From: Oleiphilus sp.
Lineage (GTDB): Bacteria > Pseudomonadota > Gammaproteobacteria > Pseudomonadales > Oleiphilaceae
Assembly (NCBI GenBank): GCA_006212045.1
Contig: PZPK01000032.1
Span: 1 to 39,285 of the forward strand
DNA: 39,285 nucleotides
Direction of reading: 5' to 3'
Shown: piece by piece, positions 176 to 37,397 of the stretch
How positions within the stretch are numbered: the stretch's first letter is position 1
Layout: each line of letters starts with the position of its first letter
Position numbers and translations under genes: made by a program
The notes under the pieces: generated by a model
Told to the model about the DNA's origin: nothing
Database searches by the model: none
The model's input: only the letters and a program-made list of their open reading frames with translations

Positions 176-1489
<1,314 letters not shown>

Positions 1490-1533
1490 TCCGGATCATC
1501 AATCCAGAACGAAAAGAAGAGAGGACAGGCAAT

Positions 1534-2547: not shown

Positions 2548-2613
2548 ATCCTTACCTGTGCTGATGCATTACGGCGGCCATGGCCGTGCGTATGACATCG
2601 AGGAGAAGTCGTT

Positions 2614-5123
<2,510 letters not shown>

Positions 5124-5135
5124 GCGGAGCCGGAA

Positions 5136-6473
5136 ATGCACGCGTATGAAGTAAACTTTGATGGATTGGTCGGTCCAACGCATAACTATGCCGGATTGTC
5201 TTATGGCAATGTGGCCTCTCAGGCCAATCTGAAACAGTCGTCCAATCCGAAAGAAGCCGCCAAACAGGGCCTGCGCAAGATGAAGTCACTGGCAGATCAG
5301 GGCTTCCAGCAGGCGGTATTGCCACCACTGCAGCGTCCGGATTTGAATTTTTTGCGCCAGATCGGGTTCACCGGATCCGACGCACAGGTATTGTCCAAAG
5401 CCGCCCGACAGGCTCCCCAGATGTTGGCTGCCGCTTATTCGGCTTCCAGTATGTGGACCGCGAATGCGGCCACGGTTTCACCGAGTGCCGATACCGCCGA
5501 CGGCCGCGTCCATTTCACCGCAGCCAATCTGAATGCCAAGGTGCATCGTTCTGTGGAGCATCCTGTGACCAGTCGCATTCTGGCGGCGATTTTCGAAGAT
5601 CCTGAGTTCTTTGCCCATCATCAGGCTTTGCCCGCAGTTTCTCAGTTCGGGGATGAAGGGGCGGCCAATCACACGCGCTTTTGTGCTGATTATGGCGCCC
5701 CCGGCGTCGAGTTTTTTGTCTATGGCAAGGTCGCTTTCGATGCAGGGGCGGCCAAACCACACCGATATCCGGCGCGCCAGACAAAAGAAGCCTCAGAAGC
5801 CATCGCGCGCTTGCACGGTTTGGATGAGGGAGGAGTCGTATATGCGCAGCAACGTCCTGAAACCATTGATTCCGGTGTGTTTCACAATGATGTCATTGCC
5901 GTTGGAAACCGCGAGGTCCTGTTCTACCACGAGCGCGCGCTTGTTGATACCGAACGTGTATTGTCGGAGCTGGATCAGAAGCTTCAGGGAGCTGATTTGA
6001 AAGCCGTGATGGTGCCTGAGCAGGCGGTTTCATTGGAAGATGCCGTGGGTTCCTATCTGTTTAACAGCCAGCTGTTGAGTCGCAGCGACGGGGGCATGAC
6101 TCTCGTTGTTCCGGGTGAATGCCGCGAAGTGGCCTCAGTATCCGCCTATCTGGATCAACTGCTTGGTATGGATAACCCGATTGACCGGATTGAGGCCTTT
6201 GACCTGAAACAAAGCATGAAGAACGGCGGCGGGCCGGCCTGTTTGCGCTTGCGTGTGGTATTAAATGCGGCGGAACTGGCTGCCGTGAAATCGACCGTCA
6301 TTATGGATGATGCGCTGTTTGAACGCTTGAATCATTGGGTCGATGCGCATTACCGGGACCGTCTGAGTCAAAACGATCTGGCCGATCCACAGCTGCTACA
6401 GGAAAGTCTTTCAGCGCTGGATGAGCTGACGCACATTCTGCAACTGGATTCGGTTTACCCCTTCCAGAGATAG
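5136..6473 (+). CDS. astB: N-succinylarginine dihydrolase (AstB)
   Basis: A 445-aa amidinotransferase/dihydrolase-fold enzyme. It hydrolyses N2-succinylarginine to succinylornithine, two ammonia and CO2, the second AST step. The start [21 protein letters not shown] is characteristic. Candidate triad residues, by analogy with E. coli AstB, are E174 in [10 protein letters not shown]250 in SGVFHND and C369 in [11 protein letters not shown]. The full family length is present. It is the last gene of the plus-strand operon and ends 11 bases before the convergent astE stop; no intrinsic terminator is visible between them, so readthrough antisense RNA is possible. Confidence 0.95.
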
Positions 6474-13564: not shown

Positions 13565-14599
13565 CTATGGGTGCTTTCTTCGGGCCCGTGCCAGACCCAA
13601 AAGTCCGAGTCCCAGCAGTGAAAGGGTACCGGGCTCTGGTACGCTAACGTTATTGTCGTTATCGTCATCAGGCAGCGGGGGCGCGTCGTCATTGACCGCG
13701 GCCAGAGCAGTGATGCTGATGCCTGCGAAGAAGATATTGTCGTTGTTAGAAGGGTTTTGAGTGTCAATCACAATTTGATCATCGCCTGCGGCAATAAAAT
13801 CGTTCAGTGAATAGAGTTCATCATCCTGACGCGGGCCAGTTTGGCTACAGTCTGGACCATCTGTGCTGTCGCCCAGTCCACCTACAGTAATCAGGCCGCC
13901 ATTAAAGCCACCGCCGTCATCCTGTCCGCCTGCACAGGTTGTCAGGTTGGAACCATTTACGTCGACAATCGAGTTCTGGCTATCACCCTGAAAGCCATAG
14001 CCGATGCCGAGAGACAAAGTGGCTTCAAAGTCTGGTTCATCCAAGCGTGCTTGAGTCAGAGGTTCAGCGAGATTGATAACAGCTTGATCCCCAGCGGGTT
14101 GACTAAAACCATCCAGAAAGGCAATCGTACGCTCTTCTTCGTTGGGGTTGCTGTAAACAATGGCAAGTACTTCACCGTCAATGGTTGTTGAAGGGCTTTC
14201 TGAATTGACAGCAAAGCTGAAAGGGCTGGCACTGCCGCCACCGACAAGCGCTGCGACCTGTGAAGTAACATCGGTGCGATAGGCACGCAGATTAACGGAA
14301 TTTCCGCCAAGGTGCGTCCAGTCTGCGCCGGAATAGGTTACGCCCTGAAAGTTAACCGTAGGAATTGTGCTTGCGCTTGAAGGGACTAATGATGAATACA
14401 AAAATGCCGCTTCAACGGTGGAACCGAGTGGAACGACTGCATCAACAAAACCGACGGGCGTCGAATTGCTGCCAACCGCATCCAGTGACCAGTTACCTTT
14501 TCCGTTAAACTGGTAACTGACATCGAGCGCTGCGTTGGCGCTCATACTAAGGGCTGATGCGGCAATTCCCGCGCACATCAGGGTTTTTAAACCTTTCAT
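13565..14599 (-). CDS. PEP-CTERM sorting domain protein
   Basis: A 344-aa exported protein starting MKGLKTLMC, with AGGAGG immediately upstream of ATG 14599. It has a signal peptide ending near SANA, then an extracellular domain beginning LDVSYQFNGKGNWS. The C-terminus is a classical exosortase signal: VPEPGT, a hydrophobic segment LSLLGLGLLGLA, then ARARRKHP. A short Pro/Asp/Asn linker precedes it. The core contains AGGQDDGGGFNGGLITVGG and RQDDELYS, both shared with the neighbouring paralogue. Such proteins are cut by an exosortase (EpsH family) and usually end up in the surface or exopolysaccharide matrix. No exosortase gene is in this window. Confidence 0.88.
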   Translation of the reverse strand: MKGLKTLMCAGIAASALSMSANAALDVSYQFNGKGNWSLDAVGSNSTPVGFVDAVVPLGSTVEAAFLYSSLVPSSASTIPTVNFQGVTYSGADWTHLGGNSVNLRAYRTDVTSQVAALVGGGSASPFSFAVNSESPSTTIDGEVLAIVYSNPNEEERTIAFLDGFSQPAGDQAVINLAEPLTQARLDEPDFEATLSLGIGYGFQGDSQNSIVDVNGSNLTTCAGGQDDGGGFNGGLITVGGLGDSTDGPDCSQTGPRQDDELYSLNDFIAAGDDQIVIDTQNPSNNDNIFFAGISITALAAVNDDAPPLPDDDNDNNVSVPEPGTLSLLGLGLLGLARARRKHP

Positions 14600-15246
14600 A
14601 GATATTCCTCCTGGAATCATTTTGTTATGAAGCAAGCTCTTCCTGTGAATCTGACATCAACACTAAACTCAGCCCGAGAGCCATCTTGAAGTTATTGAAA
14701 GCTATGCCTTCGATGTGTCTCAATGCATATCTCTTTCCATGTTCAGCTAAATATGAATAAAAATAACGGCTTGCCTATAAAGTTGAGGCCATCCTCAATT
14801 GCATAGTGTAAAAATACTTGACATGTCCTAAGTGCCTGAAACTGATAGGCAATAGGTTTTTGGGCTATGCATTGATGTTTTAATGACAGAAGGGAATGTT
14901 ATGAATGTTCGTTGGATTGTTCATCCAGGTGTGAAGCGTATTTACGCAACGGCTGATTGTTCAGGGTGATTTACAACGGGGTGAAGGGGTGGCCCCTGTA
15001 TTTAGGAGCCTGTCAGTTGTTTCTGCCCTAGCAGAATTTTGCTGCCTCGATTCTTTAGGCTTCTGAAATTACGTTCATTTGTGCACCCTTGTCTGGCATC
15101 GCAGGACGGCAGCGATTTTCACCTTTCTGCATATGAAGGTGTAAAAAGGCCCGACAGTGCGTTCTGGCAAAATTGTCGGACAATCAGGCTTGCAGGATAT
15201 GGAAAAAAGTTGCGTTTGATGATCTTCTACAGTTTGCCGGTATGAT
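14600..15246. other. Intergenic spacer between PEP-CTERM paralogues
   Basis: About 650 bp without a convincing gene. It contains an inverted repeat TTGAGG-CCAT-CCTCAA (14783-14798), in the promoter-side region of the minus-strand PEP-CTERM gene, and a 13-bp palindrome ATTGTC-G-GACAAT near 15173. A 22-codon reading frame with AAGGGA upstream starts at ATG 14901 on the plus strand (ends 14969). It may be chance. I found no match to a -24/-12 sigma-54 promoter, which often drives PEP-CTERM genes. Confidence 0.5.
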
Positions 15247-16445
15247 TCAAGCGACACTGGTATAACCTACTCGCCGAAGCGCTAGCATAGAGAGCCCAAT
15301 CAGCATCAATGTCCAGGTCGTGGGCTCCGGAACATGCACGGTTCCATCACCACCGGAAGAGCCGGTACCCCCATTGTCGCTGCCATTGCTTCCTCCATCT
15401 CCTTCGTTGCCACCATTGCTATCATCGCCATTTCCGCCACTACCGCCATCTTCGCCGTTGTTGCCTCCTCCGCTGTTGCTGCCACCATTACTGCCCCCAG
15501 TCGGAGGGTCAATGGGTGCATCATTGACAGTTGCCAGCGCCGTGATATTGATACCGGCAAAGAAGATATTGTCGTCTTTGGAAGGATTGAGGGTTTGTAT
15601 TTCTATGGATTCGTCACCGGCTTCGAGAAAAGCTTCAATGCTGTAGAGCTCGTCATCCTGACGGCTCCCGACAATCTCACAGTCAGGACCGTCCGGGCTA
15701 TCGCCGATCCCTCCCACGGTAATGAGTGCGCCGCCAAAGAAGCTATCGCTACCGTCGTCCTGTCCGCCGGCACAAGCGGTAAGCAGCGTATCATTTACGC
15801 GGACCTCTGATACCTGTAAATCATCCAGCCCTTCTCCCAGTAATACTGATTGTAAGCTGAACCCGATGCCGAGTGACAGCAGGGCTTCAAATTCGGGTTC
15901 GGCCAGTTTTTCCTCGGTCAGGGGCGTGTCGAAGTCGACCATGGTCTGATCACCCAGCGAATTGCTGAAGCCGTCCAGAAATGCGACCGTGCGCTCCTCT
16001 TCATTGGGGTTACTGTAAATAATTGCCAGTACTTCTCCATCAACTTGAGGACTGTTGAGTTCGGAGTCTATATCGAAAGAGAAAGGGGTATCGCTGCCAT
16101 TGCCAACCAACGCGCTGACCTGATCGGTCACATCAGTACGAAAGGCGGTCAAATTAAAGTCGTTGGTGCCAAGGTTTTCCCAGTCAGTTCCGGCATAAAC
16201 AATGCCTTCAAAACTGACTTCCGGTATCTCGGGCCGTCCCAGAACCAAAGGTAAGCGATTTCGACCGTCGAGCCCACCGGGACGATGGCAGATACCGTAC
16301 CGGTCGGGTTGGAAACACTACCTACGCCATCAATTGACCAGTTGCCGCGGCCTTGGAATTGATAGGATACATCGAGCGCAGCAAGGCCCGCAGGTGAAAT
16401 CAATAACATCAGCAACAACGTGCACAATTGCCTCGAACCTAGCAT
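15247..16445 (-). pseudogene. Second PEP-CTERM protein, interrupted by a frameshift
   Basis: A paralogue of the upstream-numbered PEP-CTERM gene. The N-terminal part starts MLGSRQLCTLLLMLLIS at ATG 16445 behind AGGAGG and reads LDVSYQFQGRGNWSIDGVGS to VEIAY. The homologous continuation PLVLGRPEIPEVSFEGIVYAGTDW is in another frame, which requires a -1 shift near 16245-16252. After it the reading frame is open to the end, through AGGQDD, RQDDELYS, a roughly 60-residue Gly/Ser/Asn/Asp linker, and VPEPTTWTLMLIGLSMLALRR. Apart from the shift everything is intact, so it is either a very recent pseudogene, a sequencing error, or a slip site. The low-complexity linker is longer than in the first copy. 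Confidence 0.82.
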
Positions 16446-17285: not shown

Positions 17286-17644
17286 CGTGACATTGTTACT
17301 CCGCGGCATGCACGTTTGCTGAAAGTATGGCGCTCGCCCCAAGGGCGGGGCCCGTTTGATCATTATTAAATCACATGAATATTAGTCGAAAGATGCCAGT
17401 TTTGCCCAATAGCCAAGTATGTCATTTTGTAATTGATAGTTAGCTCAAACTTTAATGCCCCCGAAAAACGTTCAGGGCATGGAACAAACCGGGTTCTGGT
17501 TTTGTCTGTTATTTCGACCAATACGCGTTTGGACGCGCGTCCGGACCTCCATTGTTGGTGGTATTTATCCCAGGAATTTGAACTCACACGGCAGAATGGA
17601 ATAGAGTGATCATACCTTCGATCCGATTTCAAAATTACAAGAAT
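17286..17644. promoter_or_regulatory. Divergent spacer between the CheX-like gene and egtB
   Basis: About 360 bp that must contain both promoters. It includes a perfect 12-bp palindrome GGACGCGCGTCC at 17531-17542, about 100 bp before the egtB ATG, and an inverted repeat ATGCCC (17455-17460) / GGGCAT (17475-17480). Both are candidate operators or RNA structures; no regulator is identified. A GTG at 17606 in frame with egtB is an alternative start. Confidence 0.4.
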
Positions 17645-18967
17645 ATGAATACCGATTTCATACTGGCGGATTTTCAGCGGGTAAGGGCGCAATCCCTCGA
17701 CGCCTGCTCAGGTTTGTGTCTGGAGGATTACGGCCTGCAGGCTGCCGTGTTTGCGAGCCCTCCCAAGTGGCATCTGGCACATACCAGCTGGTTTTTCGAA
17801 ACTTTTATTCTGAAGCCATTTTCTGAGGGTTATCAGGAATTCAATCCCCGCTTCGAAGTCCTGTTTAATTCCTATTACAACGGTATCGGGCAGCAACATC
17901 CCAGAGCCGAGCGCGGGCTGTTGAGTCGCCCGGAGTTGAGCGAAATACTGGCGTATCGCAACCATATCGATGCCTGCATGCTGTCATTGCTGGATCAAAG
18001 TGCTCACCCTGACAGGGAAGAGATTTGGACCCGCTGTCGGCTGGGTTTGCAACATGAACAGCAGCATCAGGAACTGTTCTACACCGATATCAAATATTCT
18101 TTTTCCCGTAATCCACTGTTTCCAGCGCTTCATGAACCCGATTCCAGTGATAAGTCAGCTCTGGCCTCCTCAAATGTTGGTGATATCGCGACACTTGCCT
18201 ATGCGTCGTTTGAAGGTGGACTGGTCAGTATCGGCCAGGACGTTGACAAGGAAGATGCGGCTGGTAGCGTCACGGGTTTTTCATTTGATAATGAGCGACC
18301 GGCACACAAGGTGTATCTGGAGCCCTTTTCCTTTGCTACGCGCCTGGTGACCAATGCTGAATATCTCGCATTTATTGAGGATGGCGGTTACGAGAGACCT
18401 GAACTGTGGTTGGCAGATGGCTGGAACTGGGTGCAGCAGCGAGACATCAAAGCGCCATTATATTGGTATGAGCGGAATGGAGAGGCTATGGAGTACACGC
18501 TGTACGGTCTGCGCCGGCGCTTGCCTGCGTTGCCGGTATGCCATGTCAGTGCTTATGAAGCAGACGCCTATGCGGCCTGGGCCGGTGCCAGATTGCCTAC
18601 GGAATTTGAGTGGGAAACAGTTGCACGTGCTGTATCAGAGGCGTCAGGAAGCTCCGGGGCTATTACCTTACATCCGGCGGCACTGCAGCCCGGACAGGAG
18701 ACGCAACAGGCGCACGGACAGGACATCGGGCAGCTGTTCGGGCACTGCTGGCAATGGACAGGCAGCGCCTACCGGCCCTATCCCGGCTACCGGAAAGCCG
18801 AGGGTGCGATCGGTGAATATAATGGCAAGTTCATGTGTAATCAGTGGGTGTTACGTGGCAGTTCCTGTGTGACGCCCGTGGGCCATGCCCGCAGTAGTTA
18901 CAGGAACTTTTTTACCCCGGAAGACCGTTGGCAGTTCACCGGCATTCGCTTGGCCCGGGATATATAG
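17645..18967 (+). CDS. egtB: Ergothioneine biosynthesis sulfoxide synthase (EgtB)
   Basis: About 440 aa. A non-haem iron enzyme that couples O2-dependent C-S bond formation between hercynine and a thiol donor (gamma-Glu-Cys or Cys) to a sulfoxide. The N-terminal DinB-like domain has WHLAHTSWFFETF (H46) and LQHEQQHQELFY (H137, H141), giving the expected three-histidine iron site. The C-terminal FGE-sulfatase-like domain includes PVCHVSAYEADAYAAWAGARLPTEFEWE, GHCWQWTGSAYRPYPGY, and the terminal VLRGSSCVTP...RSSYRNFFTPEDRWQFTGIRLARD. ATG 17645 fits family alignments; a GTG at 17606 would add 13 residues. No fused methyltransferase is present, which argues against ovothiol synthase OvoA. Confidence 0.92.
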   Translation: MNTDFILADFQRVRAQSLDACSGLCLEDYGLQAAVFASPPKWHLAHTSWFFETFILKPFSEGYQEFNPRFEVLFNSYYNGIGQQHPRAERGLLSRPELSEILAYRNHIDACMLSLLDQSAHPDREEIWTRCRLGLQHEQQHQELFYTDIKYSFSRNPLFPALHEPDSSDKSALASSNVGDIATLAYASFEGGLVSIGQDVDKEDAAGSVTGFSFDNERPAHKVYLEPFSFATRLVTNAEYLAFIEDGGYERPELWLADGWNWVQQRDIKAPLYWYERNGEAMEYTLYGLRRRLPALPVCHVSAYEADAYAAWAGARLPTEFEWETVARAVSEASGSSGAITLHPAALQPGQETQQAHGQDIGQLFGHCWQWTGSAYRPYPGYRKAEGAIGEYNGKFMCNQWVLRGSSCVTPVGHARSSYRNFFTPEDRWQFTGIRLARDI

Positions 18968-18995
18968 CACTGCGCCTGATTCGTATCGGTGGGAG

Positions 18996-19050
18996 CCAGT
19001 GCGGTTTATTCCGGAAATCCGGGGTCAAAGGTGTCGTGTGCTCGCACTGG
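18996..19050 (+). promoter_or_regulatory. Nested hairpin in the egtB-egtD gap
   Basis: The outer stem CCAGTGCG (18996-19003) pairs with CGCACTGG (19043-19050), perfect over 8 bp. It encloses a short hairpin CCGGA-AA-TCCGG (19011-19022). The structure is followed by AATAAAAAAA, not T, so it is not a plus-strand terminator. It lies about 120 nt before egtD, in a 204-nt gap between two genes of one pathway, and may be a leader or processing element. Further on, a direct repeat GGAATCC occurs at 19124-19130 and 19138-19144 close to the egtD ribosome-binding site. Function is unknown. Confidence 0.45.
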
Positions 19051-19171
19051 AATAAAAAAAGAGAACCGCGTCGGACTGATCAGGTTGTACAGGCAAACGC
19101 AGAACAATCGTATTATTTACCGCGGAATCCCGAGCAGGGAATCCTCAAGCTGATCACATCAAGGAGCGATC

Positions 19172-20164
19172 ATGTCTGAATTTGCCTCAAGCCTCGAAGC
19201 TTCGCCATTGTCGAATGTCCGGTTCAATTATCAGCCGGCAATGCAGTCCAATGGTCTGCAAGAAATTGTTCAGGGGCTGTGCCAGAAACACAAACAGATT
19301 CATCCGAAATACTTTTACGACCACCTTGGCTCGCAGTTGTTTGAGCGCATCACCGAGACTCCCGAGTACTATCCGACACGCACAGAGCGCCGCATCCTGT
19401 TGGAAAATGCGGAATCGATTGCAAAGTATTGTGGCGAAGATTGCGTCGTGATCGAGCCTGGCAGTGGCAGCAGCGAAAAAATCAGACTGTTACTTGAGAC
19501 GATGCGCCCGAAGGCGTATGTGCCGATGGATATTTCCGCCGAGTTTCTGCATCACGCGGCGATTCGTCTGGGGCAGGACTTCCCCTGGTTACACGTCAGT
19601 GCCGTGTGTGCGGATTTTGCGAGTTACGAACCGGCCCAAAGGCAGTTGCCATCGGGGAAGCGGGTGGTTTTTTATCCGGGCTCGACACTTGGGAATATGA
19701 GCCGGGAAGCGGCACGAGGTTTTCTGGGAAAAATGGCTGGCTGGCTGGATAGCGAGGGCGGGGTGCTGGTGGGGATAGATTTGCATAAATCCAGCGCTAC
19801 CCTGAATGCCGCCTACAACGACGCTGAAGGTCTGACTGCGCAATTCAACCTGAATGTACTGAATCACCTGAATCGTATTGCGGATGCCAATTTCGAGCCG
19901 GAACAGTTTGAGCATCTGGCGTTTTACAATGAGTCCGAGCGTCGTATCGAGATGCACCTGGTAAGTCGGTCGGACCAGATCGTTCGCGTAGGTGGTCACG
20001 CCATTGCGCTGTCACAGGGCGAACGGATCCATACCGAGAATTCCCACAAGTACACGCTATCGGGATTTGCGGAACTGGCAGAGCAGGCCGGTCTGAAAAC
20101 AGTCAGGGTTTGGCAGGATCAGGATGCCCTGTTCAGCTTGCACTATCTTGAGCGGATACAATAG
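19172..20164 (+). CDS. egtD: L-histidine N-alpha-methyltransferase (EgtD)
   Basis: A 330-aa SAM-dependent enzyme that trimethylates the alpha-amino group of histidine to make hercynine, the EgtB substrate. Diagnostic segments are PKYFYDHLGSQLFERITETPEYYPTRTE (about 44-71), the SAM-binding VIEPGSGSSEKIRLLL (about 92-107), YVPMDISAEFL, and VVFYPGSTLGNMSREAARGFL. Length is typical of the family. AAGGAG upstream supports ATG 19172. It pairs with egtB; no egtA, egtC or dedicated egtE C-S lyase is seen nearby, which is common in proteobacteria. The last 32 bp overlap the 3' end of the convergent exporter gene. Confidence 0.94.
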   Translation: MSEFASSLEASPLSNVRFNYQPAMQSNGLQEIVQGLCQKHKQIHPKYFYDHLGSQLFERITETPEYYPTRTERRILLENAESIAKYCGEDCVVIEPGSGSSEKIRLLLETMRPKAYVPMDISAEFLHHAAIRLGQDFPWLHVSAVCADFASYEPAQRQLPSGKRVVFYPGSTLGNMSREAARGFLGKMAGWLDSEGGVLVGIDLHKSSATLNAAYNDAEGLTAQFNLNVLNHLNRIADANFEPEQFEHLAFYNESERRIEMHLVSRSDQIVRVGGHAIALSQGERIHTENSHKYTLSGFAELAEQAGLKTVRVWQDQDALFSLHYLERIQ

Positions 20165-29857: not shown

Positions 29858-30256
29858 CTAATGGGGTAGGTTTGCCTGAGCGCTGTCGAGATATTTGCGT
29901 ATGGAGGGTGTCAGCAAGTCCGGGTTTACCGGCTTATCGAAATATTCACTCACGCCTGCATCCAGTGCCGCTTGTTGCAGGTCCTGACCTTCTGAGGTGA
30001 CCATAATGATCGGGGTATTGGCAAATGCTTCCTGGGCATGGATAGCTCGCACCATTTCCAGACCATTTACTCCCGGCATGTCCAAATCCGTAATGATGAG
30101 ATCAATATCCGGTTGCATGGACAGAATGTCCAGACCGTTTTGGCCATCAACTGCCTGAAGTGGTTTCACGTTGAAAAACGTTTCCAAAATAAGACAGATC
30201 AATGATCGAATTTCAGGTTGATCGTCGGCGACCAGCACCTTGATATCTTTTGCCAT
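29858..30256 (-). CDS. Stand-alone receiver (CheY-like)
   Basis: A 132-aa single-domain response regulator. Acidic pocket residues are in VLVADDQPE, the phospho-acceptor is D57 in LIITDLDMPGVNG, the switch Thr is in IIMVTSEG, and the Lys is in YFDKPVNPD. There is no output domain, so it acts by protein contact or as a phosphorelay shuttle. It is divergent from the receiver at 30422-30805. A partner could be the orphan kinase at 32518-33705; the pairing is inferred. Confidence 0.9.
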   Translation of the reverse strand: MAKDIKVLVADDQPEIRSLICLILETFFNVKPLQAVDGQNGLDILSMQPDIDLIITDLDMPGVNGLEMVRAIHAQEAFANTPIIMVTSEGQDLQQAALDAGVSEYFDKPVNPDLLTPSIRKYLDSAQANLPH

Positions 30257-30338
30257 GACTATAAGTACACACGCAGAATCGGGGAGAAAGCGTTACTCAC
30301 TAAGATGGAGTTTAGTTGATAAATCGAATCCGACGAAC

Positions 30339-30354
30339 TATAACTTTCGTTATA
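30339..30354. promoter_or_regulatory. Inverted repeat in the divergent receiver promoter
   Basis: TATAAC-TTTC-GTTATA, 6-bp arms and 4-bp spacer, is roughly midway between the two divergent receiver genes. It may be an operator shared by both; the regulator is unknown. Confidence 0.35.
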
Positions 30355-30421
30355 AATTGTTAACGACCTTATCTCATAAGCAGGGTCAGCCGTTTTCGCT
30401 ACAGCACAGGAACAAAGCTTA

Positions 30422-30805
30422 ATGGAAATTAAACAAGTGTTACTGGTTGATGATGAAGACATGATTCGTCAGTTAGCCGAGCTATCACTTTCACAATTTG
30501 GCGACCTGGAAGTCTGTTCTTGCAATTCGGGAGAGTCTGCCATTGAGAAACTGGAAACTTTTTCGCCGCAGCTGATTCTTCTGGATGCCAATATGCCGGG
30601 ACTTTCCGGTCCGGAAACGCTTGAGGCAATACGTAGCAATCATCGTTTTGTCGACACGCCGGTCGTTTTTATCACCGGAGAATCACGTGCATCAGAAATT
30701 CAGCGTTTAAAGGACCTGGGCGCCGCCGACGTGATCGTTAAACCCTTCGATCCCATGACGCTGGCGGAACAGGTGAAAAAGATAGGTCACAAGGTCAATG
30801 ACTGA
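30422..30805 (+). CDS. Stand-alone receiver in operon with diguanylate cyclase
   Basis: A 127-aa single-domain response regulator. VLLVDDEDMIRQ gives the acidic pocket, D55 in LILLDANMPGLSG is the phospho-acceptor, FITGES holds the Thr, and VIVKPFDP holds the Lys. The end overlaps the start of the next gene by 8 nt (ATGACTGA), showing tight coupling. In a multistep relay it would accept phosphate from a kinase and pass it to the Hpt domain encoded just downstream. Confidence 0.92.
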   Translation: MEIKQVLLVDDEDMIRQLAELSLSQFGDLEVCSCNSGESAIEKLETFSPQLILLDANMPGLSGPETLEAIRSNHRFVDTPVVFITGESRASEIQRLKDLGAADVIVKPFDPMTLAEQVKKIGHKVND

Positions 30806-32477
30806 CGACAAGCAGGCAAACGAATTTGCGGCTGCGCTGGATCGACTCAAACAGGCGTATATTGATCGTCTTCCCGGGGAGCTATCTGCAATTGAAGCGG
30901 CACTGGCAGAAATGGAGGCAAATCAACCCGCACCCAAACAGCTGGAAAACATGCGACAACTGCTGCACAAAATGGCAGGGTCGAGTGGCACCTTTGGTTT
31001 GCGTGAGCTGGGAGCGCAGGCGAAAGAAATAGAGCAGCAGATCAAAGCCTGGCAAAAAGTGGACAAAGATGCCTTGTCGACTGAAGACCTGGTGGCTTTG
31101 GGGCGGGCTTTTAACAGCATCAAATCCGCCAGTCTTATTGTCGATCAAAGTGTGTCTTTCAATGTACAAGCCAAACCGGATTTACATCTGGATGAGGACC
31201 TCGTGCGGTTATGGCTGGTGGAGGACGATGCAATTCTGGCGGGAGAACTCAAACGCCAGTTTGATGCCTTTGGCTTTAGTACAACGGTTTTCCCGGATAT
31301 TACATCGGCAGATAAAGCCGCTAAAACTGCCCAGCCAGACGCCTTGGTGTTGGACGTCATGTTTGACAATGGTGCGGTCAATGCGACAGAAGTCTTTGCC
31401 AGTACCATCTTTCTATCGAAACTGGCATGCCCCGTGATATTCATGTCGGCCTACGATGATTTTGCATCCCGAATTCGGGCAGTACAGCTCAATGCCAAGG
31501 GGTATTTCCTGAAGCCCATTTCAGTACCGTCTGTGGTGAACCATTTACGGCGTGAGTTCGAGGCCGTGAATAGTCCAGACTCTCGTATACTGATTATTGA
31601 CGATGATGTTGAATTGGCGCGGCATTTTCAATTGCTACTGCAGGCTTCTGGGTTCGATGTACGGTGTTTGTTTGAACCGGAAGAGATTATTGAAGTATTG
31701 GGTGACTTTAACCCGGAAGTCGTGCTGATGGATTTGCATATGCCGAAGTATAACGGCATGGAACTGGCTGGCGTGATTCGCCAGCATTCAAACTGGATGA
31801 GTTTACCGATTCTGTATCTGAGTGGAGAAACGGATCTGGAAGCACAGGCAAATGCACTTGCCAAGGGGGCGGAAGATTTTCTGACCAAGCCGATCAGCGA
31901 TATTCAGTTGGTTTCCACGATCAGAGCTCGCGTTATGCGTTCCCGGCAGCTTGAAGAGAAAATATCCAGAGACAGCCTCACCGGTTTGCTGAAACACGCA
32001 GTCATCAAGGAAACCGCGCGGCACGAAGTTCGACGTGCCGTACGCAGTGGCAAGCCCTGTAGTCTTGTGATGCTGGATATTGACCACTTCAAGCTGGTCA
32101 ATGACAGCTACGGCCATGCCGTTGGCGACGTAGTTATTTCAGCCGTGGCGACGGTGTTGCAGCAACGGCTGCGTAAGACGGATCTGGTCGGTCGTTATGG
32201 CGGAGAGGAGTTTGTTGCCGTGTTGCCGGAATGCGATTCCAAAAAGGCCATGACGCTTGTTGAGGAAATTCGAAAATCCTTCGAGCAACTCGAATTCTGC
32301 CATGACGACAGGGTGTTCCACTGTACATTTTCTGCCGGAGTCATCTGTTCCGGCGAGTTTAAGGATCTTGATGGTGAGCAATTGTTGATTAGCGCTGATA
32401 ATGCGCTCTATCATGCCAAGGAAAATGGACGCAATCAGGTAGCCTTGGCGACTGAAGTGCTTGAACCCGTCAGCTAG
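30798..32477 (+). CDS. Hpt-REC-REC-GGDEF diguanylate cyclase
   Basis: A 559-aa soluble multidomain protein. An N-terminal Hpt domain (about 10-115) has H57 in LLHKMAGSSGTFGL. The first receiver (about 137-250) has a divergent acceptor region, D186 in LVLDVMFDNGA. The second receiver (about 263-380) is canonical, D312 in LMDLHMPKYNG. A GGDEF domain (about 390-550) starts RDSLTGLLKH and has the active GGEEF (468-472) with the inhibitory I-site RKTD (459-462). It therefore should make c-di-GMP with product inhibition. Hpt plus two receivers in one chain suggests control by phosphorelay. It ends 40 bp before the convergent kinase gene. Confidence 0.93.
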   Translation: MTDDKQANEFAAALDRLKQAYIDRLPGELSAIEAALAEMEANQPAPKQLENMRQLLHKMAGSSGTFGLRELGAQAKEIEQQIKAWQKVDKDALSTEDLVALGRAFNSIKSASLIVDQSVSFNVQAKPDLHLDEDLVRLWLVEDDAILAGELKRQFDAFGFSTTVFPDITSADKAAKTAQPDALVLDVMFDNGAVNATEVFASTIFLSKLACPVIFMSAYDDFASRIRAVQLNAKGYFLKPISVPSVVNHLRREFEAVNSPDSRILIIDDDVELARHFQLLLQASGFDVRCLFEPEEIIEVLGDFNPEVVLMDLHMPKYNGMELAGVIRQHSNWMSLPILYLSGETDLEAQANALAKGAEDFLTKPISDIQLVSTIRARVMRSRQLEEKISRDSLTGLLKHAVIKETARHEVRRAVRSGKPCSLVMLDIDHFKLVNDSYGHAVGDVVISAVATVLQQRLRKTDLVGRYGGEEFVAVLPECDSKKAMTLVEEIRKSFEQLEFCHDDRVFHCTFSAGVICSGEFKDLDGEQLLISADNALYHAKENGRNQVALATEVLEPVS

Positions 32478-32517: not shown

Positions 32518-33705
32518 TCAGTGTTCCATGTTTTGCGCTGATCGCAAAGGCAGCGTGAAATAAAACTCCGTCCCCACGCCGATCTCACTTTTGACACCAA
32601 TGTGGCCCTGATGAGCCTCCACCACTTTCTTCGTGATCGCCAGACCCAGACCGGTAGATTTCTCCCCGCCTGTGGCTTTTACGCTTGTCGTTTCAAAGGG
32701 TTCAAAAACCTTGTGCAATTCGTTTTCCGGTATGCCCTGACCTTCATCACGTACGCTGACCCGTATCTCTTTCTCTTCTCGTTCCAAAGCAACGCAAATT
32801 TGCGTATTCTCATGCGAGTACTTGATCGCATTGCTAATGAAGTTGTTAATGACCTGTTCAACTTTAGGCGCGTCAATTTGCAGGATCGTCGAGCCGGGGG
32901 ACGAGTAATGTATTGAAATACCTTTTCTATCGGCAATAACCTGATTGAGCTCAACATCCTCTTTCAGCAAAGTATTGATATCCACTTCGCTGATGTGAAG
33001 TACCACCTTGCCTGATTCAAGTTCGCTGATATCCAGCAGCTCCTCCAGCATGCCGGTCATTTTGTCGGTCGTTTCAATGGCCTTGTCCAGCATTTGCAGT
33101 TGCTGTTCGCTGAGGTTGTCACTGGTGCCTTTGACAAACTTGATATAGCCGCCAATCACGCCGAGTGGGTTGCGCAGGTCATGCGCTGCGATGCCGATTA
33201 ATTCATTCTTCTGATCATTCAGTTTGGCGAGTTTGTTATTGGATTTATTCAGTTCACGTTGAATGTTAACGAGCTCATTATTGAGTTTGGTAAACTCTTG
33301 AAGCTGGGGTTCCTGCAAGGTGGATTGCTTCTGTAAATTCGACTTCACTGACTCCCGTAACTGATTAGCCAGTTCATTATTTACTTTGGCAATTTCATCA
33401 TAGATGGAAGAGTCGAGGCCCTGATTGTTGGAAGCCAGCAACATGAACTTTTCGTCCTTGGATACGCCGGTAAAGTAAAAACTGCGCACCTCGCCCTGAC
33501 TATTGACGCCAAGTGGTACGTCGAACACGATACTTTCTGTTTTGAGTCGATTGATAAAATTCATGGCGGAAGCAAATTCACCCTGACTCAGAACCATAGG
33601 GAACAGCATGCCGGCTTCGACCTTTTGTTCAAGGTTGTTATACAGGACGCGCAGGATCTTTCCGGTTTTATCGACCTCAAGCGCAATGCCCATTAATTCC
33701 TGCAT
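32518..33705 (-). CDS. Soluble sensor histidine kinase
   Basis: About 395 aa from ATG 33705, one base after the stop of the cobalamin-binding gene; upstream in-frame codons belong to that gene in another frame. The N-terminal about 105 residues look PAS-like (MGIALEVDKTGKILRVLYNN...VRSFYFTGV). A coiled coil rich in KLNNELVNIQRELNKSNNKL follows, then the HisKA domain with H175 in GIAAHDLRNPLGVIGGY. The HATPase domain has N-box NFISNAIKYSHE, G1 DEGQGIPE, F-box and G2 STGLGLAITKK. No transmembrane span or receiver is seen. The coupled gene order suggests that the cobalamin protein is its sensor. Confidence 0.9.
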   Translation of the reverse strand: MQELMGIALEVDKTGKILRVLYNNLEQKVEAGMLFPMVLSQGEFASAMNFINRLKTESIVFDVPLGVNSQGEVRSFYFTGVSKDEKFMLLASNNQGLDSSIYDEIAKVNNELANQLRESVKSNLQKQSTLQEPQLQEFTKLNNELVNIQRELNKSNNKLAKLNDQKNELIGIAAHDLRNPLGVIGGYIKFVKGTSDNLSEQQLQMLDKAIETTDKMTGMLEELLDISELESGKVVLHISEVDINTLLKEDVELNQVIADRKGISIHYSSPGSTILQIDAPKVEQVINNFISNAIKYSHENTQICVALEREEKEIRVSVRDEGQGIPENELHKVFEPFETTSVKATGGEKSTGLGLAITKKVVEAHQGHIGVKSEIGVGTEFYFTLPLRSAQNMEH

Positions 33706-33706
33706 G

Positions 33707-34762
33707 CTAAGCGGCCTTTGATGCCAGTTTATTGGCCATTTCGATGGCCAATTTGGCATCGCTTGAATGTGCGTCCGCACCTATTTCGCGATACAGCTCC
33801 GGCGAAACATTGAAGGGATAGCCGCCCACCATAATACAGCTGGGTTTGGCTTCGTTTTCCCGTATGTTTTTGATCAGATCTTTGACCTGCGGGAGGTGTG
33901 AGGTAATGGTCGCTGAAATACCAATCATGTCCGGTTGTTTCTCCCTGACGAATTCCAGCACACTGTCGATGGGGACATTGGCGCCAAGATAAAAGGCGTC
34001 CCAGCCGTTCATTTCCAGCAGGTCTGCCACCATGCGTACGCCTACTTCATGCAACTCGCCCTGAGCGCAGGTGATGACCGAGACCTTGCCATTCTTTTCG
34101 TTGGCAAATATATAAGGATATAGTTGGGACATGCACAATTGGGTAGCCGCCGTGCAAAAATGCTCTTGCGCGACGCTGATACGACCGGTTTGCCATAGCA
34201 GGCCTACTTCCCGCTGGCAGGTCTGAAACACATTCAGGTAAATATCCTGGATGGGGATCTTTTGCTCTTGTACGGCGGCCAGGACCAGTTTACTGGCAGC
34301 ATTGCGGTTAGACGCCAGTAAAAGATCCAGATAGTTTTGCGCCAGATTGAGGTAGGGGGCGCCCTCTACAAGAAAGCTGTTGCCGGCTTGTGATTTCTCA
34401 CCCAGCTGGGCTTCCGCGGCTTGCAGTATCTCACCAATGCGGCCCGCAACATCCTGAGCAAGCTTCTGTCTCAGAACATCCCCCATGACCTGAAGATTTT
34501 CGGCAAGGTGTGAGATAGGGAGATTGATGCCTTCAAACAGGGTTTTGGCCCAGGCAATATAGTCTACAAACAGTTGCGTACTCTGATTGTCCAGCGCCTG
34601 TTGCAGATAGGTTAAGTGGGTCACCGCGTCCTCGAGGCATTTCTGCTGTCCCTGGGGACCATACCGTTTGGGCAACTCGGGGTTGCGTTGATAGTGCAAG
34701 TCTACAATGGTTTTTGCCAATTCAGGATAGCTGTCGGGAGTCAGCTCAATTTGCTCGCTCAT
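33707..34762 (-). CDS. Cobalamin-binding sensor with Wx9EH photoreceptor motif
   Basis: A 351-aa protein. The N-terminal about 130 residues are helical and unrecognised. A B12-binding cap domain (about 140-215) contains W190-x9-E200-H201 in LLWQTGRISVAQEH, the signature of B12-dependent photoreceptors (CarH, LitR, AerR). The Rossmann B12-binding domain (about 226-345) has ExHxxG (E236, H238, G241), with H238 the probable lower axial cobalt ligand, and MVGGYPFN. There is no DNA-binding MerR domain, unlike CarH, so output is presumably through the kinase gene that follows after one base. Methyltransferase corrinoid proteins are an alternative, but no methyltransferase is nearby. Confidence 0.85.
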   Translation of the reverse strand: MSEQIELTPDSYPELAKTIVDLHYQRNPELPKRYGPQGQQKCLEDAVTHLTYLQQALDNQSTQLFVDYIAWAKTLFEGINLPISHLAENLQVMGDVLRQKLAQDVAGRIGEILQAAEAQLGEKSQAGNSFLVEGAPYLNLAQNYLDLLLASNRNAASKLVLAAVQEQKIPIQDIYLNVFQTCQREVGLLWQTGRISVAQEHFCTAATQLCMSQLYPYIFANEKNGKVSVITCAQGELHEVGVRMVADLLEMNGWDAFYLGANVPIDSVLEFVREKQPDMIGISATITSHLPQVKDLIKNIRENEAKPSCIMVGGYPFNVSPELYREIGADAHSSDAKLAIEMANKLASKAA

Positions 34763-34773
34763 TAGCCACCTCT

Positions 34774-35073
34774 TTAGTCAGTCAGTTTGGTAAAGTAACG
34801 CACGAATGTTGCTTTGGGGTCCAGTTTCAGTCCTTTGGGAATACCTTTGTGTGAGGCATGGTGAGCTTCGCTGCGATGCCAGTTCTGAAACGAATCCTCG
34901 TCAGTCCAGCGTGTGAGTAGCCAGAACTCGGCATCGTCATCGTGTGGGCGATAAACTTCCATATCAATAAAGCCCTGAGTGCTGTCTACCAGATGAGGAC
35001 GCGACAGAAACGCAGATGCAACCTCGTCCTGCATGTCATTGCTGACCTTGAATCGACTAAGGGCTAAAAACAC
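34774..35073 (-). CDS. ABM/IsdG-fold monooxygenase-like protein
   Basis: A 99-aa dimeric alpha-beta barrel protein of the antibiotic biosynthesis monooxygenase superfamily, starting at GTG 35073 behind GGGAG. FWLLTRWTDEDSFQNWHRSEAHHASH is the typical C-terminal half; W65 and nearby histidines match the Trp/His of haem-degrading IsdG/HmoA enzymes. The Asn conserved near the N-terminus of those enzymes is Ser6 here (LALSRFKV), so haem cleavage is uncertain. It lies 11 bp before the cobalamin-binding gene on the same strand, as the first gene of that operon. It might bind haem or a related ligand for the sensor. Confidence 0.75.
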   Translation of the reverse strand: MFLALSRFKVSNDMQDEVASAFLSRPHLVDSTQGFIDMEVYRPHDDDAEFWLLTRWTDEDSFQNWHRSEAHHASHKGIPKGLKLDPKATFVRYFTKLTD

Positions 35074-35280: not shown

Positions 35281-36981
35281 TCAGTAGAGAGTGAATATCG
35301 GCAGATCAAAGGCGAGTGAGATGAACATCGATTCCATCTTTTCATCTTCGTGTTCTGCCAACGTTATGTCTTTCTGGTAGCCCACCAGAATTGCTGCGGG
35401 ATAGGCATTAAAGGTATAGGAAAAGAACAGGCTCGGGCTCTTGATATGGTCGAGTTTGGCTTCATAGGATGTTTCCTGCAGCTCATTATTAATATAGGTG
35501 CCAATATCGATAGGAGAGTAGTTGATCAATAAGCTGCCTTTTCGCAGTTTAAGCAATTTCAGTTCGATGCCCACCGGGCCGAAGGGGCGGTAATCGTATC
35601 CATAGCTGCCTTTGATGGGACCTGTCGTTCGTTCGCGTGAAAATGCAAGCCCAAAATAAGAGCTGACAAAGAGCATGTCTTCACAGAGTGCGACGTTACA
35701 GGAACGTTGCCAGCGATGCGTATCTTCGGACCGGTCAGGGGTATAGCGCACGGCATAGGCATCGTTGGTGCGCTTGGAGCGATAGGCACCTTGCTCATCG
35801 ACAAAATCGTTAAGCACGCCTGCTACGGCTTCTGCGCCATTCTGGTTGTTAGAGGCATCTGCAATTGAAGCGAAAAACATTGAGTACTTGCGTACAAGAT
35901 GAAATCCCGAAAAATCACGCTCATTAATGTCTGAATAGCGGTCAATGACTTTTAGCAGTGTATGGGCACGCACTACGTAGGGAACGTTTTCGTTCTCTTC
36001 ATCGCTGCTGTTTCGAATGGAGTTGAAGGCCTGTATCTGTGTCCTTACCAGAGCGATCTTGTCATATACGCTGAGAAGATAAGGAACGTTCAAGAAGCCC
36101 TCCAGCGTGTTTGGCAGCGCACCCGATTGTTCTGTGGTCTCGTCTATGTCCGGGTTCACCTCGTCCAGTCTGGCCTTGACCAGTTTTGCCAGGTTTCTGT
36201 GCTGCAGAAATTCCTTTAGCATCAAAGGCTGCTGAGCGTTTTGGTTTGCCGTAAGCAAATCCTTGAAAGTCTGGCTGTTGAATACCTGAGACAGCAATGC
36301 CGATTTCGAGAGAAGAGACTGAACATCTGCCTGGTTAAAAAAATCTTCAGGTCGGGCCTGTTCAAACCGCATGCGAAGTGCCTGAAATTGTTCAGCGCCA
36401 AACACCTTCACCAGCGCGATCTGCCGGGACAATATTTGCTTGAACTCAGAACGGCTTGGAAATTTGATCTCTGTTCTGAAATCACCGTACTGTGCTTCTT
36501 TCAGATCAGGGCAAACACTGTTCATGAAATCGATCATCGAAATGCCAGTATTTGAATCGTTTGAGGTAATGACTGCCTTCAAATGCCTGTACAAGGCCTT
36601 GGGTTTTCGCGTCAGTTCCAGCAGGTCTTCTGATACTACCCACCGATTAATATTATGGGGAATACACTGATAAATGGCTGCTTCGAACCGGTTTAGGTCC
36701 TTTTCAACGGCCAGCTTGACCAGCGCGCCCAGACCAGTACTTCCAATGTCATACTGGATTCGCACAACCTCGGCAGTTGAAGGGAAGTATTTGTTTACAT
36801 AGTTGTTCTCAGCGACTTTCAGTAGCGCGTTCTCAAGAACAATTTTTTCCACTCGCGAGGCATTCCACTTTGCAAAGCCACTGATGACATTTTGGCTGTT
36901 AACGCTCGCATGGGCACTCGAAAAAGCACTCTGCATGATGATAATTCCGCAGGCCAGAATCCAGATTTTTGTTCTAGGCAT
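35281..36981 (-). CDS. Large exported protein of unknown function
   Basis: A 566-aa protein starting at ATG 36981 with GGAG six bases upstream; an in-frame start 12 bases earlier is less likely. The signal peptide is MPRTKIWILACGIIIMQSAFSSAHA. The N-terminal about 350 residues are mainly helical and I do not recognise a family. The last 150 or so alternate as beta strands (GSLLINYSPIDIGTYINNEL, SPSLFFSYTFNAYPAAILVGYQKDI) and end FDLPIFTLY with an aromatic terminus. This suggests insertion in, or attachment to, the outer membrane. No partner is clear; it is divergent from the lipoprotein hydrolase. Confidence 0.6.
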   Translation of the reverse strand: MPRTKIWILACGIIIMQSAFSSAHASVNSQNVISGFAKWNASRVEKIVLENALLKVAENNYVNKYFPSTAEVVRIQYDIGSTGLGALVKLAVEKDLNRFEAAIYQCIPHNINRWVVSEDLLELTRKPKALYRHLKAVITSNDSNTGISMIDFMNSVCPDLKEAQYGDFRTEIKFPSRSEFKQILSRQIALVKVFGAEQFQALRMRFEQARPEDFFNQADVQSLLSKSALLSQVFNSQTFKDLLTANQNAQQPLMLKEFLQHRNLAKLVKARLDEVNPDIDETTEQSGALPNTLEGFLNVPYLLSVYDKIALVRTQIQAFNSIRNSSDEENENVPYVVRAHTLLKVIDRYSDINERDFSGFHLVRKYSMFFASIADASNNQNGAEAVAGVLNDFVDEQGAYRSKRTNDAYAVRYTPDRSEDTHRWQRSCNVALCEDMLFVSSYFGLAFSRERTTGPIKGSYGYDYRPFGPVGIELKLLKLRKGSLLINYSPIDIGTYINNELQETSYEAKLDHIKSPSLFFSYTFNAYPAAILVGYQKDITLAEHEDEKMESMFISLAFDLPIFTLY

Positions 36982-37397
36982 TGGGCACTCCACTTATGAT
37001 TCTGAAACTACTATCGGGTGTTATCGGCTAACGGCGTTTTCGTATTCTTTGGTGGCACGGCGTGCAGCGAATCGGCTTGGCCATCCTTTGGTGTTTCTTG
37101 TTATTTTTTTTATGGCTCAAATTTTCGTGAGCGCGAAACGTTTTATCCTGCAATCAGGGAAAACGATCTGTAACTCATCTTTTCAGATAATTTCGTGCAT
37201 TAAACGCTGGTAAGATTGACAGGTGTGCGTTTGTGATGCTGCACATAGAATCTAATGTTGGTTCAGACGTGAATCTGCTTCATGCTTTGATGCAAATAGT
37301 GAAAGCAGCGTGTCAATCGAATGGTGACGTCAGAGTGCATGTCCTCTGACTGAAAACCCGGACTGATTATTCTGAATAATAAACAAAGGAATTCCAT
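36982..37397. other. Divergent intergenic region
   Basis: About 415 bp holding the promoters of the exported protein (minus) and the hydrolase (plus). Just before the hydrolase GTG an ATG at 37396 opens a seven-codon frame (MCTECNG, stop), overlapping the start region; this could be chance. No terminator or named gene is seen. Confidence 0.4.

What the first reader, a model, noticed from the sequence alone, without database searches (positions are those of the whole stretch)
32518..35073. B12-type photosensor coupled to a soluble histidine kinase
Seen: one operon encodes an ABM-fold protein, a cobalamin-binding protein with W190-x9-E200-H201 plus E236-x-H238-x-x-G241, and a kinase that starts one base after it. 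Known: Wx9EH marks CarH/LitR/AerR-type B12 photoreceptors, where adenosylcobalamin photolysis changes oligomer state; CarH and LitR carry a DNA-binding domain, and this protein has none. Inference: light or corrinoid status is signalled to a separate kinase instead of to DNA. That would be a two-component B12 light-signalling module.
Basis: partly seen in the sequence, partly recalled or inferred. Interest (0 to 1): 0.78.

Follow-up and report, generated by a model that had tools for sequence, protein, structure and literature searches.

The report
Two-pigment light sensor with partner kinase
Three neighbouring genes look like a light-sensing switch: a protein built to hold vitamin B12 and probably a second, bile-type pigment, a partner kinase to pass the signal on, and an enzyme-like protein that may supply the pigment; the sensor belongs to a recently described family, and no light response has been shown for this one.

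Summary
In detail: three genes, both motifs, the one-base gap. D45 and W71 fall on SasPcob Asp270 and Trp296, its biliverdin contacts. A kinase directly follows the sensor gene in 52 of 80 related loci, across about 14 phyla by title, Asgard archaea included; in one myxobacterial frame both are fused. Heme-degrading-type genes recur there: the ABM subfamily at 12 of 80 loci plus 2 weaker, a canonical heme oxygenase at 3 or more. Against: the ABM protein lacks the Asn of the IsdG triad; of 50 carrier genomes searched only 3 have a PF01126 heme oxygenase and 8 the ABM subfamily; several carriers belong to anoxic-habitat lineages. Light sensing through B12 is likely, bilin binding plausible, bilin supply by the ABM protein open. 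A new variant of a known kind.

The parts
34774..35073 (-). ABM-fold protein, 99 aa, IsdG/HmuQ/HmoB-like heme-degrading monooxygenase fold; S6, W65, H75
   Evidence: PF03992 E 3e-16; HmuQ NF053649 E 1e-12 but 48 bits, cut-off 130; PDB relatives incl. IsdI, IsdG, HmoB, MhuD; S6, W65, H75 invariant in 12 aligned rows, window included
33707..34762 (-). photocobilin-type sensor, 351 aa: globin + four-helix cap + Rossmann B12 domain
   Evidence: profile of 61 homologues: best PDB matches 8j2x/8j2w E 8e-58 and 8j2y E 1e-41, each matched in two stretches
34397..34762 (-). N-terminal phycobiliprotein-like globin domain, residues 1-122
   Evidence: AlphaFold2 mean pLDDT 95.7, five helices; the 50 listed Foldseek matches are by title phycobiliproteins or phycobilisome structures, smURFP and one 'bacterial fluorescent protein', top 6kgx TMq 0.81, E 6.5e-4; PF00502 in 37 of 61 homologues at E <= 0.1
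34628..34639 (-). C42-L-E-D45, aligned with the C-x-R-D bilin site of phycobiliproteins; D45 = SasPcob Asp270
   Evidence: D in 55 of 61, C in 17 of 61
34550..34552 (-). W71 = SasPcob Trp296 (contacts biliverdin D ring and corrin)
   Evidence: W in 61 of 61; alignment
34112..34348 (-). four-helix cap (B12-binding_2), residues 139-217
34160..34195 (-). W190-x9-E200-H201 adenosyl-pocket motif
   Evidence: conservation partly by construction: the scan patterns cover it
33710..34099 (-). Rossmann B12-binding domain, residues 222-351
   Evidence: PF02310 E 6e-25
34040..34057 (-). E236-x-H238-x-x-G241, lower-ligand histidine motif
   Evidence: H238 in 61 of 61, G241 in 60 of 61
32518..33705 (-). soluble histidine kinase, 395 aa, phospho-acceptor H175
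   Evidence: HisKA, HATPase_c; no membrane-like stretch; related kinases directly downstream of homologues
33361..33705 (-). kinase N-terminal domain (about residues 1-115), no Pfam name; proposed docking domain for the sensor (inference)
   Evidence: no Pfam match in this stretch of the window kinase at E 0.1; F50 invariant, G15 and G80 nearly so in 35 rows; no room for it in the natural fusion L067
30422..32477 (+). lone receiver (30422-30805) and Hpt-receiver-receiver-GGDEF protein (30798-32477), convergent with the kinase; possible outputs (inference from position only)

Best explanation
The module is a photocobilin two-component light switch. The 351-aa protein binds adenosylcobalamin in its CarH-like domain and probably a linear tetrapyrrole in its N-terminal phycobiliprotein-like globin. 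Green light, or redder light caught by the bilin, breaks the Co-C bond; loss of the adenosyl group shifts the W190/E200-H201 helix and changes how the sensor pairs with itself. That change is passed by protein contact, most likely through the kinase's own N-terminal domain and signalling helix, to the histidine kinase encoded one base downstream, which then changes phosphorylation of a response regulator. The ABM protein is the best local candidate for making or handling the bilin. Shown by comparison: domain make-up, homology to photocobilins, conserved chromophore residues, kinase pairing. Inferred: chromophore binding, photochemistry, docking, direction of the kinase change, ABM activity.
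For: Profile of 61 homologues: photocobilins are the three best PDB matches and match in both domains, B12 part to B12 part, N-terminal domain to the C-terminal biliverdin domain (i-Evalue 1.2e-7 for 8j2w and 8j2x, 1.6e-4 for 8j2y). D45 and W71 fall on Asp270 and Trp296; conserved 55/61 and 61/61. N-domain model pLDDT 95.7, closest listed folds allophycocyanin-type. All four published light-CBD signature elements. Gln191 as in SasPcob. Kinase directly downstream in 52 of 80 loci (49 of them at E <= 1e-10), enriched over 491 control pairs; sensor and kinase distances correlate, Pearson 0.68, Spearman 0.45, 0 of 2000 permutations as high. Natural fusion of sensor and kinase in L067. Heme-degrading-type neighbours: ABM subfamily 12 of 80 plus 2 weaker, heme oxygenase at L062, L065, L069, followed in the same chain by a globin-like stretch. 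Photolyase beside the distant homologue L006. AdoCbl supply in the genome: two mutases and a BtuR/CobO homologue. Published: SasPcob added in trans changed the activity of an isolated diguanylate cyclase domain (PMC10979010).
Against: No chromophore, light response or kinase effect was measured. The IsdG triad Asn is Ser in all 12 aligned ABM rows. No PF01126 heme oxygenase or PHY domain in the window's genome; of 50 carrier genomes searched (of 80 loci) only 3 have PF01126 and 8 the ABM subfamily, so for most of these no bilin source was recognised; completeness of these genomes is not told, other heme-degrading families were not searched, and the loci with heme oxygenase next door and four ABM loci were not among the 50. 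The photocobilins' own biliverdin domain is not among the 50 listed Foldseek matches, and only 2 of 764 matches reach E 0.001; with the full-length model the best match is a CarH-like domain (8jbs) and the photocobilins, from rank 5, align over about 200 columns only. Several carriers are of lineages from anoxic habitats, judging by record titles. Per its authors AbDPcob keeps the globin but binds biliverdin weakly. In the window's order only 4 of 293 genomes match, one of them (L008) by eye a methyltransferase-type corrinoid protein.
Confidence: 0.62

Rival explanations
1. B12-only light sensor: the globin is a structural or vestigial shield, no bilin is bound, and the ABM protein has an unrelated job. 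Green light alone drives the kinase.
For: AbDPcob keeps the globin but binds biliverdin weakly (PMC10979010); of 50 carrier genomes searched 47 lack PF01126 and 42 lack the ABM subfamily; ABM lacks the triad Asn.
Against: D45, the residue replaced by His in AbDPcob, is kept in 55 of 61 and W71 in 61 of 61; heme-oxygenase and ABM genes recur at these loci.
Confidence: 0.2
2. Corrinoid, redox or oxygen sensor: loss of the adenosyl group by chemistry other than light, or cobalamin supply itself, is what the kinase reads; light is incidental, above all in anaerobic carriers.
For: Carriers include anoxic-habitat lineages such as Lokiarchaeota, Cloacimonetes and Syntrophobacteraceae (titles). By eye I recognised no light-related gene beside the window's module; the whole window was not scanned for families.
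Against: All four light-CBD signature elements in 48 of 61 (W190, E200 and H201 partly by construction of the scan); best sequence relatives in the PDB are photoreceptors; a photolyase is adjacent in L006.
Confidence: 0.13
3. Corrinoid methyltransferase shuttle protein next to an unrelated kinase.
For: NCBIfam matches to methylamine corrinoid proteins, TIGR02370 73 bits.
Against: 73 bits is far below that family's cut-off of 215; kinase neighbour; no methyltransferase among the 25 listed neighbour families; extra globin domain.
Confidence: 0.02

Closest known systems
Photocobilins SasPcob and AbDPcob (PMC10979010; PDB 8J2W, 8J2X, 8J2Y)
   Same: Both domains homologous; W-x9-EH, lower His, Asp270 and Trp296 equivalents, Gln after the Trp as in SasPcob; a standalone photocobilin acting in trans on a diguanylate cyclase domain was shown.
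   Different: Domain order reversed (globin first), which the paper mentions as existing (B12 domain at either end); partner is a separate histidine kinase rather than a diguanylate cyclase; a Cys stands three residues before the Asp, where the paper says its photocobilins lack the bilin-linking Cys.
Photoglobin family (Schneider et al. 2022, not held; known here from citations in PMC10151467 and PMC10979010, its abstract recalled)
   Same: Globin coupled to B12-binding domain in signal transduction contexts; CXQD motif reported for photoglobins in PMC10151467, here CLED and in some relatives CLQD.
   Different: Whether that paper lists this kinase pairing or the ABM gene could not be checked.
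BBAG-2 globins with separate B12-binding proteins (PMC10151467, passages only)
   Same: Globin, B12-binding protein and, in some, heme oxygenase travel together; BBAG-2 binds biliverdin.
   Different: There globin and B12 protein are separate and accompany a pre-PcyA reductase; here fused, with a kinase. Myxobacterial loci L079, L080, L083, L085 show the split form.
CarH / LitR
   Same: B12 domain and adenosyl-pocket motif.
   Different: No DNA-binding domain; the second His of CarH's light state (H132) is Gln191.
IsdG-family heme oxygenases (HmuQ, IsdI, HmoB, LFO1)
   Same: ABM fold, W65 and H75 of the triad.
   Different: Asn replaced by Ser6 in all 12 aligned rows; a largely conserved PKGLKL tail of its own.

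Membership tests
Photocobilin | CarH-like B12 domain with W-x9-EH and E/DxH | tested here: met
   W190, E200, H201, E236-x-H238; profile match to 8j2w B12 domain
Photocobilin | fused phycobiliprotein-like globin (biliverdin) domain | tested here: met
   by sequence profile to 8j2w and by fold to phycobiliproteins; order reversed
Photocobilin | Asp270 and Trp296 biliverdin contacts | tested here: met
   D45 and W71 by profile alignment; 55/61 and 61/61
Photocobilin | binds adenosylcobalamin and biliverdin; green and red light response | not testable with these tools
   needs purified protein
CarH/LitR photoregulator | N-terminal DNA-binding domain | tested here: not met
   N-terminal domain is a globin; no DNA-binding family matched
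CarH/LitR photoregulator | second His ligand after the Trp (TtCarH H132) | tested here: not met
   Gln191; Q in 44 and H in 6 of 61
IsdG-family heme oxygenase (upstream ABM protein) | Asn of the N-W-H triad (PMC5557675) | tested here: not met
   Ser6, invariant in 12 of 12 aligned rows
IsdG-family heme oxygenase (upstream ABM protein) | Trp and His of the triad, ABM fold | tested here: met
   W65, H75 invariant in 12 of 12 aligned rows
Corrinoid methyltransferase protein (MtaC/MtbC type) | score over the family cut-off | tested here: not met
   TIGR02370 73 of 215 bits; MtbC 67 of 350; MtaC 44 of 450 or 420
Corrinoid methyltransferase protein (MtaC/MtbC type) | methyltransferase gene as neighbour | tested here: inconclusive
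   none among the 25 listed of 114 families of 98 neighbours; the rest of the list was not shown
Histidine kinase (HisKA type) | phospho-acceptor His box and ATPase boxes | tested here: met
   H175 in AAHDLRNPLG; HisKA, HATPase_c

The most novel reading that the evidence does not exclude
The ABM protein is a dedicated chromophore enzyme with altered chemistry (Ser for Asn) that makes a bilin, possibly not biliverdin, and hands it to the globin of the sensor, where C42 may bind it covalently. The kinase's unnamed N-terminal domain is a dedicated docking domain for photocobilins. That would make a complete light-signalling cassette, with its own pigment supply, spread through bacteria, its sensor-kinase core reaching Asgard archaea, and give an IsdG-type fold a role in light signalling, which PMC5557675 only raises as a possibility (passage).
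Probability: 0.22. Interest if true: 0.8.

Novelty: new variant of a known kind. Interest (0 to 1): 0.52.

Why it matters
Photocobilins were described in 2024 with a diguanylate cyclase and in a standalone form whose function the paper calls less clear. These loci suggest a testable partner for globin-first standalone forms: kinases that follow the sensor gene across phyla and, once, are fused to it. A separate sensor and kinase with B12, and perhaps bilin, photochemistry would also be a useful optogenetic part. If the ABM gene makes the bilin, an enzyme fold known for iron scavenging gains a role in pigment making. The presence in lineages from anoxic habitats makes the question of what is sensed directly testable.

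Tried and rejected
Rejected: corrinoid methyltransferase carrier (scores far below cut-off; kinase neighbours). Rejected: CarH-type DNA-binding regulator. Considered and left open: ABM as bilin maker.

Results that weakened on closer testing: Cys at position 42 goes with the ABM gene, 10 of 12 ABM rows (window included) against 7 of 49 others, Fisher 1e-5, or 10 of 14 against 7 of 47 with the two weak ABM matches counted; but on a tree only 2 independent pairs rest on well-supported branches (8 on all branches), median p 0.5, so it is suggestive only. The globin match in the heme-oxygenase proteins is weak by HMMER (10.8 bits at best, E for a 3-sequence set; not over E 0.001 among all frames) and moderate by hhalign (probability 89%, E 2e-6, pairwise). 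Promoter and terminator scan gave about what shuffles give. The 3-sequence structure model served only for a first fold search; no complex with kinase or cofactor could be predicted.

Led nowhere: Pfam naming of the kinase N-terminal domain; several candidate neighbours without families.

Rows dropped: 246 relatives found, 80 kept by the tool; 22 of 80 left out of the 61-row alignment for partial or split coverage; of 128 unclassed neighbours at positions -1, +1, +2, 98 were put into the Pfam scan, chosen by me, cut to at most 330 aa; L086 and L075 were left out of the ABM alignment (both show Ser there).
Full report
What is there. On the minus strand lie three genes in close series: an ABM-fold protein (35073-34774, 99 aa), a B12-binding protein (34762-33707, 351 aa) and a histidine kinase without membrane-like stretches (33705-32518, 395 aa), with gaps of 11 and 1 bases. 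Pfam finds B12-binding_2 and B12-binding in the middle protein, HisKA and HATPase_c in the kinase and ABM in the small protein.

The first 120 residues of the B12 protein have a sub-threshold match to the phycobilisome family (E 0.0038). An alignment of 61 homologues (A2) settles what they are. The 61 are the window, 58 of the 80 loci that covered the protein nearly end to end (22 dropped for partial or split coverage), and L006 and L007. A profile of A2 against the PDB has the photocobilins as its three best matches (8j2x and 8j2w E 8e-58, 8j2y E 1e-41), each matched in two stretches: the B12 part to the chain's N-terminal half and the window's N-terminal domain to the chain's C-terminal biliverdin domain, i-Evalue 1.2e-7 for 8j2w and 8j2x and 1.6e-4 for 8j2y. 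Allophycocyanins and smURFP follow further down. The domain alone, modelled with 61 sequences, has pLDDT 95.7 and five helices, and the 50 listed Foldseek matches are by title phycobiliproteins or phycobilisome structures, smURFP and one 'bacterial fluorescent protein', the best at TM 0.81 by query length but E only 6.5e-4; the photocobilins themselves are not among these 50. Pfam's phycobilisome family is matched at E <= 0.1 by 37 of the 61. Over all 80 loci, 68 sensor genes carry the globin by profile; of the other 12, four have it as a separate gene, two have a globin frame just upstream, three follow a heme oxygenase with a weak globin-like stretch, and in three none was found. So this is a photocobilin-type protein with the globin in front. 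PMC10979010 (parts 1-4 of 8 read, and a term search) says that forms with the B12 domain at either end exist.

Chromophore residues. By the alignment, and allowing the six-residue offset that W61 fixes between chain and paper numbering, D45 falls on SasPcob Asp270, a key biliverdin contact, and W71 on Trp296, which touches both biliverdin and corrin. D45 is kept in 55 of 61 and W71 in 61 of 61. AbDPcob, which binds biliverdin poorly, has His at the Asp place (and the alignment). The window also has C42-L-E-D45 where phycobiliproteins have C-x-R-D; PMC10151467 (passages only) reports CXQD in photoglobins. Cys is present in 17 of 61. On the B12 side all four elements of the light signature of PMC11796333 (parts 1-4 of 7 read) are present in the window and in 48 of 61. 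Conservation of G187, W190, E200 and H201 is partly built in, because the scan patterns cover them; that of D45, W71, H238 and G260 is not. The residue after the Trp, His in CarH and Gln in SasPcob, is Gln here.

The kinase partner. The scan found 246 relatives, the best 80 kept. In 52 of 80 a gene whose best match among my five queries is the window's kinase (E <= 0.001; 49 at E <= 1e-10) lies within 300 bases downstream on the same strand; in 36 of these the match begins within the kinase's first 60 residues. Of the other 28, nine have a GGDEF or receiver protein, four a separate globin, three an ABM protein and twelve none of these. As a control within the same loci, a kinase is next for 44 of 70 sensors that have a next gene, but for 24 of 491 other adjacent pairs. 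For 34 pairs with full-length kinases plus the window, sensor and kinase distances correlate (Pearson 0.68, Spearman 0.45; 0 of 2000 permutations as high); no species tree was used as a control. By record titles, kinase-paired rows of the tree span 14 phyla including Promethearchaeota; at least one title is doubtful (L022). In L067 (Myxococcota) one 1552-aa frame holds the sensor (matched 944-1240) and the kinase (1283-1542), which leaves no room for the kinase's N-terminal domain between them. From this single fusion I infer that this domain, unnamed in Pfam for the window kinase, is the docking part.

The pigment question. The ABM protein resembles IsdG-family heme-degrading enzymes and belongs to a subfamily found at 12 of the 80 loci, with 2 weaker matches. 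In 8 it lies just upstream, as in the window; in L071 it is fused to a kinase and in L077 one frame matches both ABM and GGDEF queries. In the 50 carrier genomes searched it occurs in 8, once in each, and these are the 8 of the 50 whose locus carries it. Of 293 genomes of the window's order 6 have an ABM match at E 1e-8, but only the window's own exceeds 50 bits. In three Geobacteraceae loci (two of them in one assembly) the gene in front of a B12-only homologue is a canonical heme oxygenase followed in the same chain by a globin-like stretch. Heme oxygenase was, with VirK, the commonest family among the 98 neighbours scanned of 128 unclassed ones, 3 of 98. This links the sensor's globin to bilin making. 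Against a simple story: the Asn of the IsdG triad, whose exchange weakened LFO1 (PMC5557675, passages), is Ser in all 12 aligned rows; the window's genome has no PF01126 heme oxygenase and no phytochrome PHY domain; and only 3 of the 50 carrier genomes have PF01126. Other heme-degrading families (HugZ, ChuW types) were not searched. IsdG-type enzymes make products other than biliverdin (PMC9393634, passages). The link between C42 and the ABM gene (10 of 12 against 7 of 49) does not stand as an independent test on the tree.

Setting. The genome encodes two methylmalonyl-CoA-mutase family proteins and a BtuR/CobO homologue, so adenosylcobalamin should be available. In the window's order the sensor is rare: 4 of 293 genomes, of which L008 is, by eye, a methyltransferase-type corrinoid protein without the globin, and L006 and L007 are distant (26-27% identity). 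L006 has a DNA photolyase next to it. Sporadic spread suggests transfer between lineages.

How it most likely works. Adenosylcobalamin in the dark, Co-C bond cleavage in light, movement of the E200-H201 helix, changed sensor assembly, contact with the kinase N-terminal domain, changed kinase activity. The photochemical steps are carried over from SasPcob and CarH in the cited papers; the kinase step is inferred from gene order, correlated distances and one fusion. PMC10979010 shows that a photocobilin added in trans changes the activity of an isolated diguanylate cyclase domain, which makes a contact mechanism with a separate kinase reasonable. Outputs may be the receiver and GGDEF genes at 29858-32477; this rests on position alone.

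Novelty. In the listings of the paper searches (some capped) I saw no title or abstract start that describes a photocobilin with a histidine kinase partner or with an IsdG-type gene; most of the listed papers were not opened. The one held paper with both 'photocobilin' and 'histidine kinase' (PMC11908464, passages) does not join them in the passages seen, and PMC10979010 has no occurrence of 'kinase' in its main text. PMC5557675 suggests that IsdG-type bilins could serve undiscovered light signalling (passage). The founding photoglobin paper is not held and may list such neighbourhoods; its abstract, as I recall it, speaks of signal transduction contexts. I therefore call this a new variant of a known kind.

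Noticed in passing
window 29858-30256, 30422-30805, 30798-32477: Two lone receivers and an Hpt-receiver-receiver-GGDEF protein sit next to the kinase; candidate outputs.
   Followed up: partly
window 35281-36993 (-): A 570-aa frame upstream of the module matches no Pfam or NCBIfam family at E 0.01.
   Followed up: no
window 13565-14635 and 15247-16248 (-): Two neighbouring secreted-looking proteins with PEP-CTERM-like tails and similar middle parts (label recalled, by eye).
   Followed up: no
window 17606-20164 (+) and 275-6473 (+): Frames that look like ergothioneine synthesis (EgtB, EgtD) and arginine succinyltransferase pathway genes (names recalled, not searched).
   Followed up: no
L062, L065, L069: Heme oxygenase with a globin-like C-terminal stretch directly before a B12-only homologue in Geobacteraceae: a possible enzyme-to-chromophore-carrier fusion.
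   Followed up: partly
L079, L080, L083, L085: Myxobacteria carry a tandem double globin as a separate gene beside the B12 protein.
   Followed up: partly
L006: Distant homologue directly beside a DNA photolyase gene.
   Followed up: partly
L022 and L024: Nearly identical proteins in records titled Alphaproteobacteria and Bacteroidales; one contig is probably binned wrongly.
   Followed up: no
L016, 5947-6516: In Rufibacter a 189-aa frame after the sensor looks, by eye, like the kinase's N-terminal domain without the kinase.
   Followed up: no
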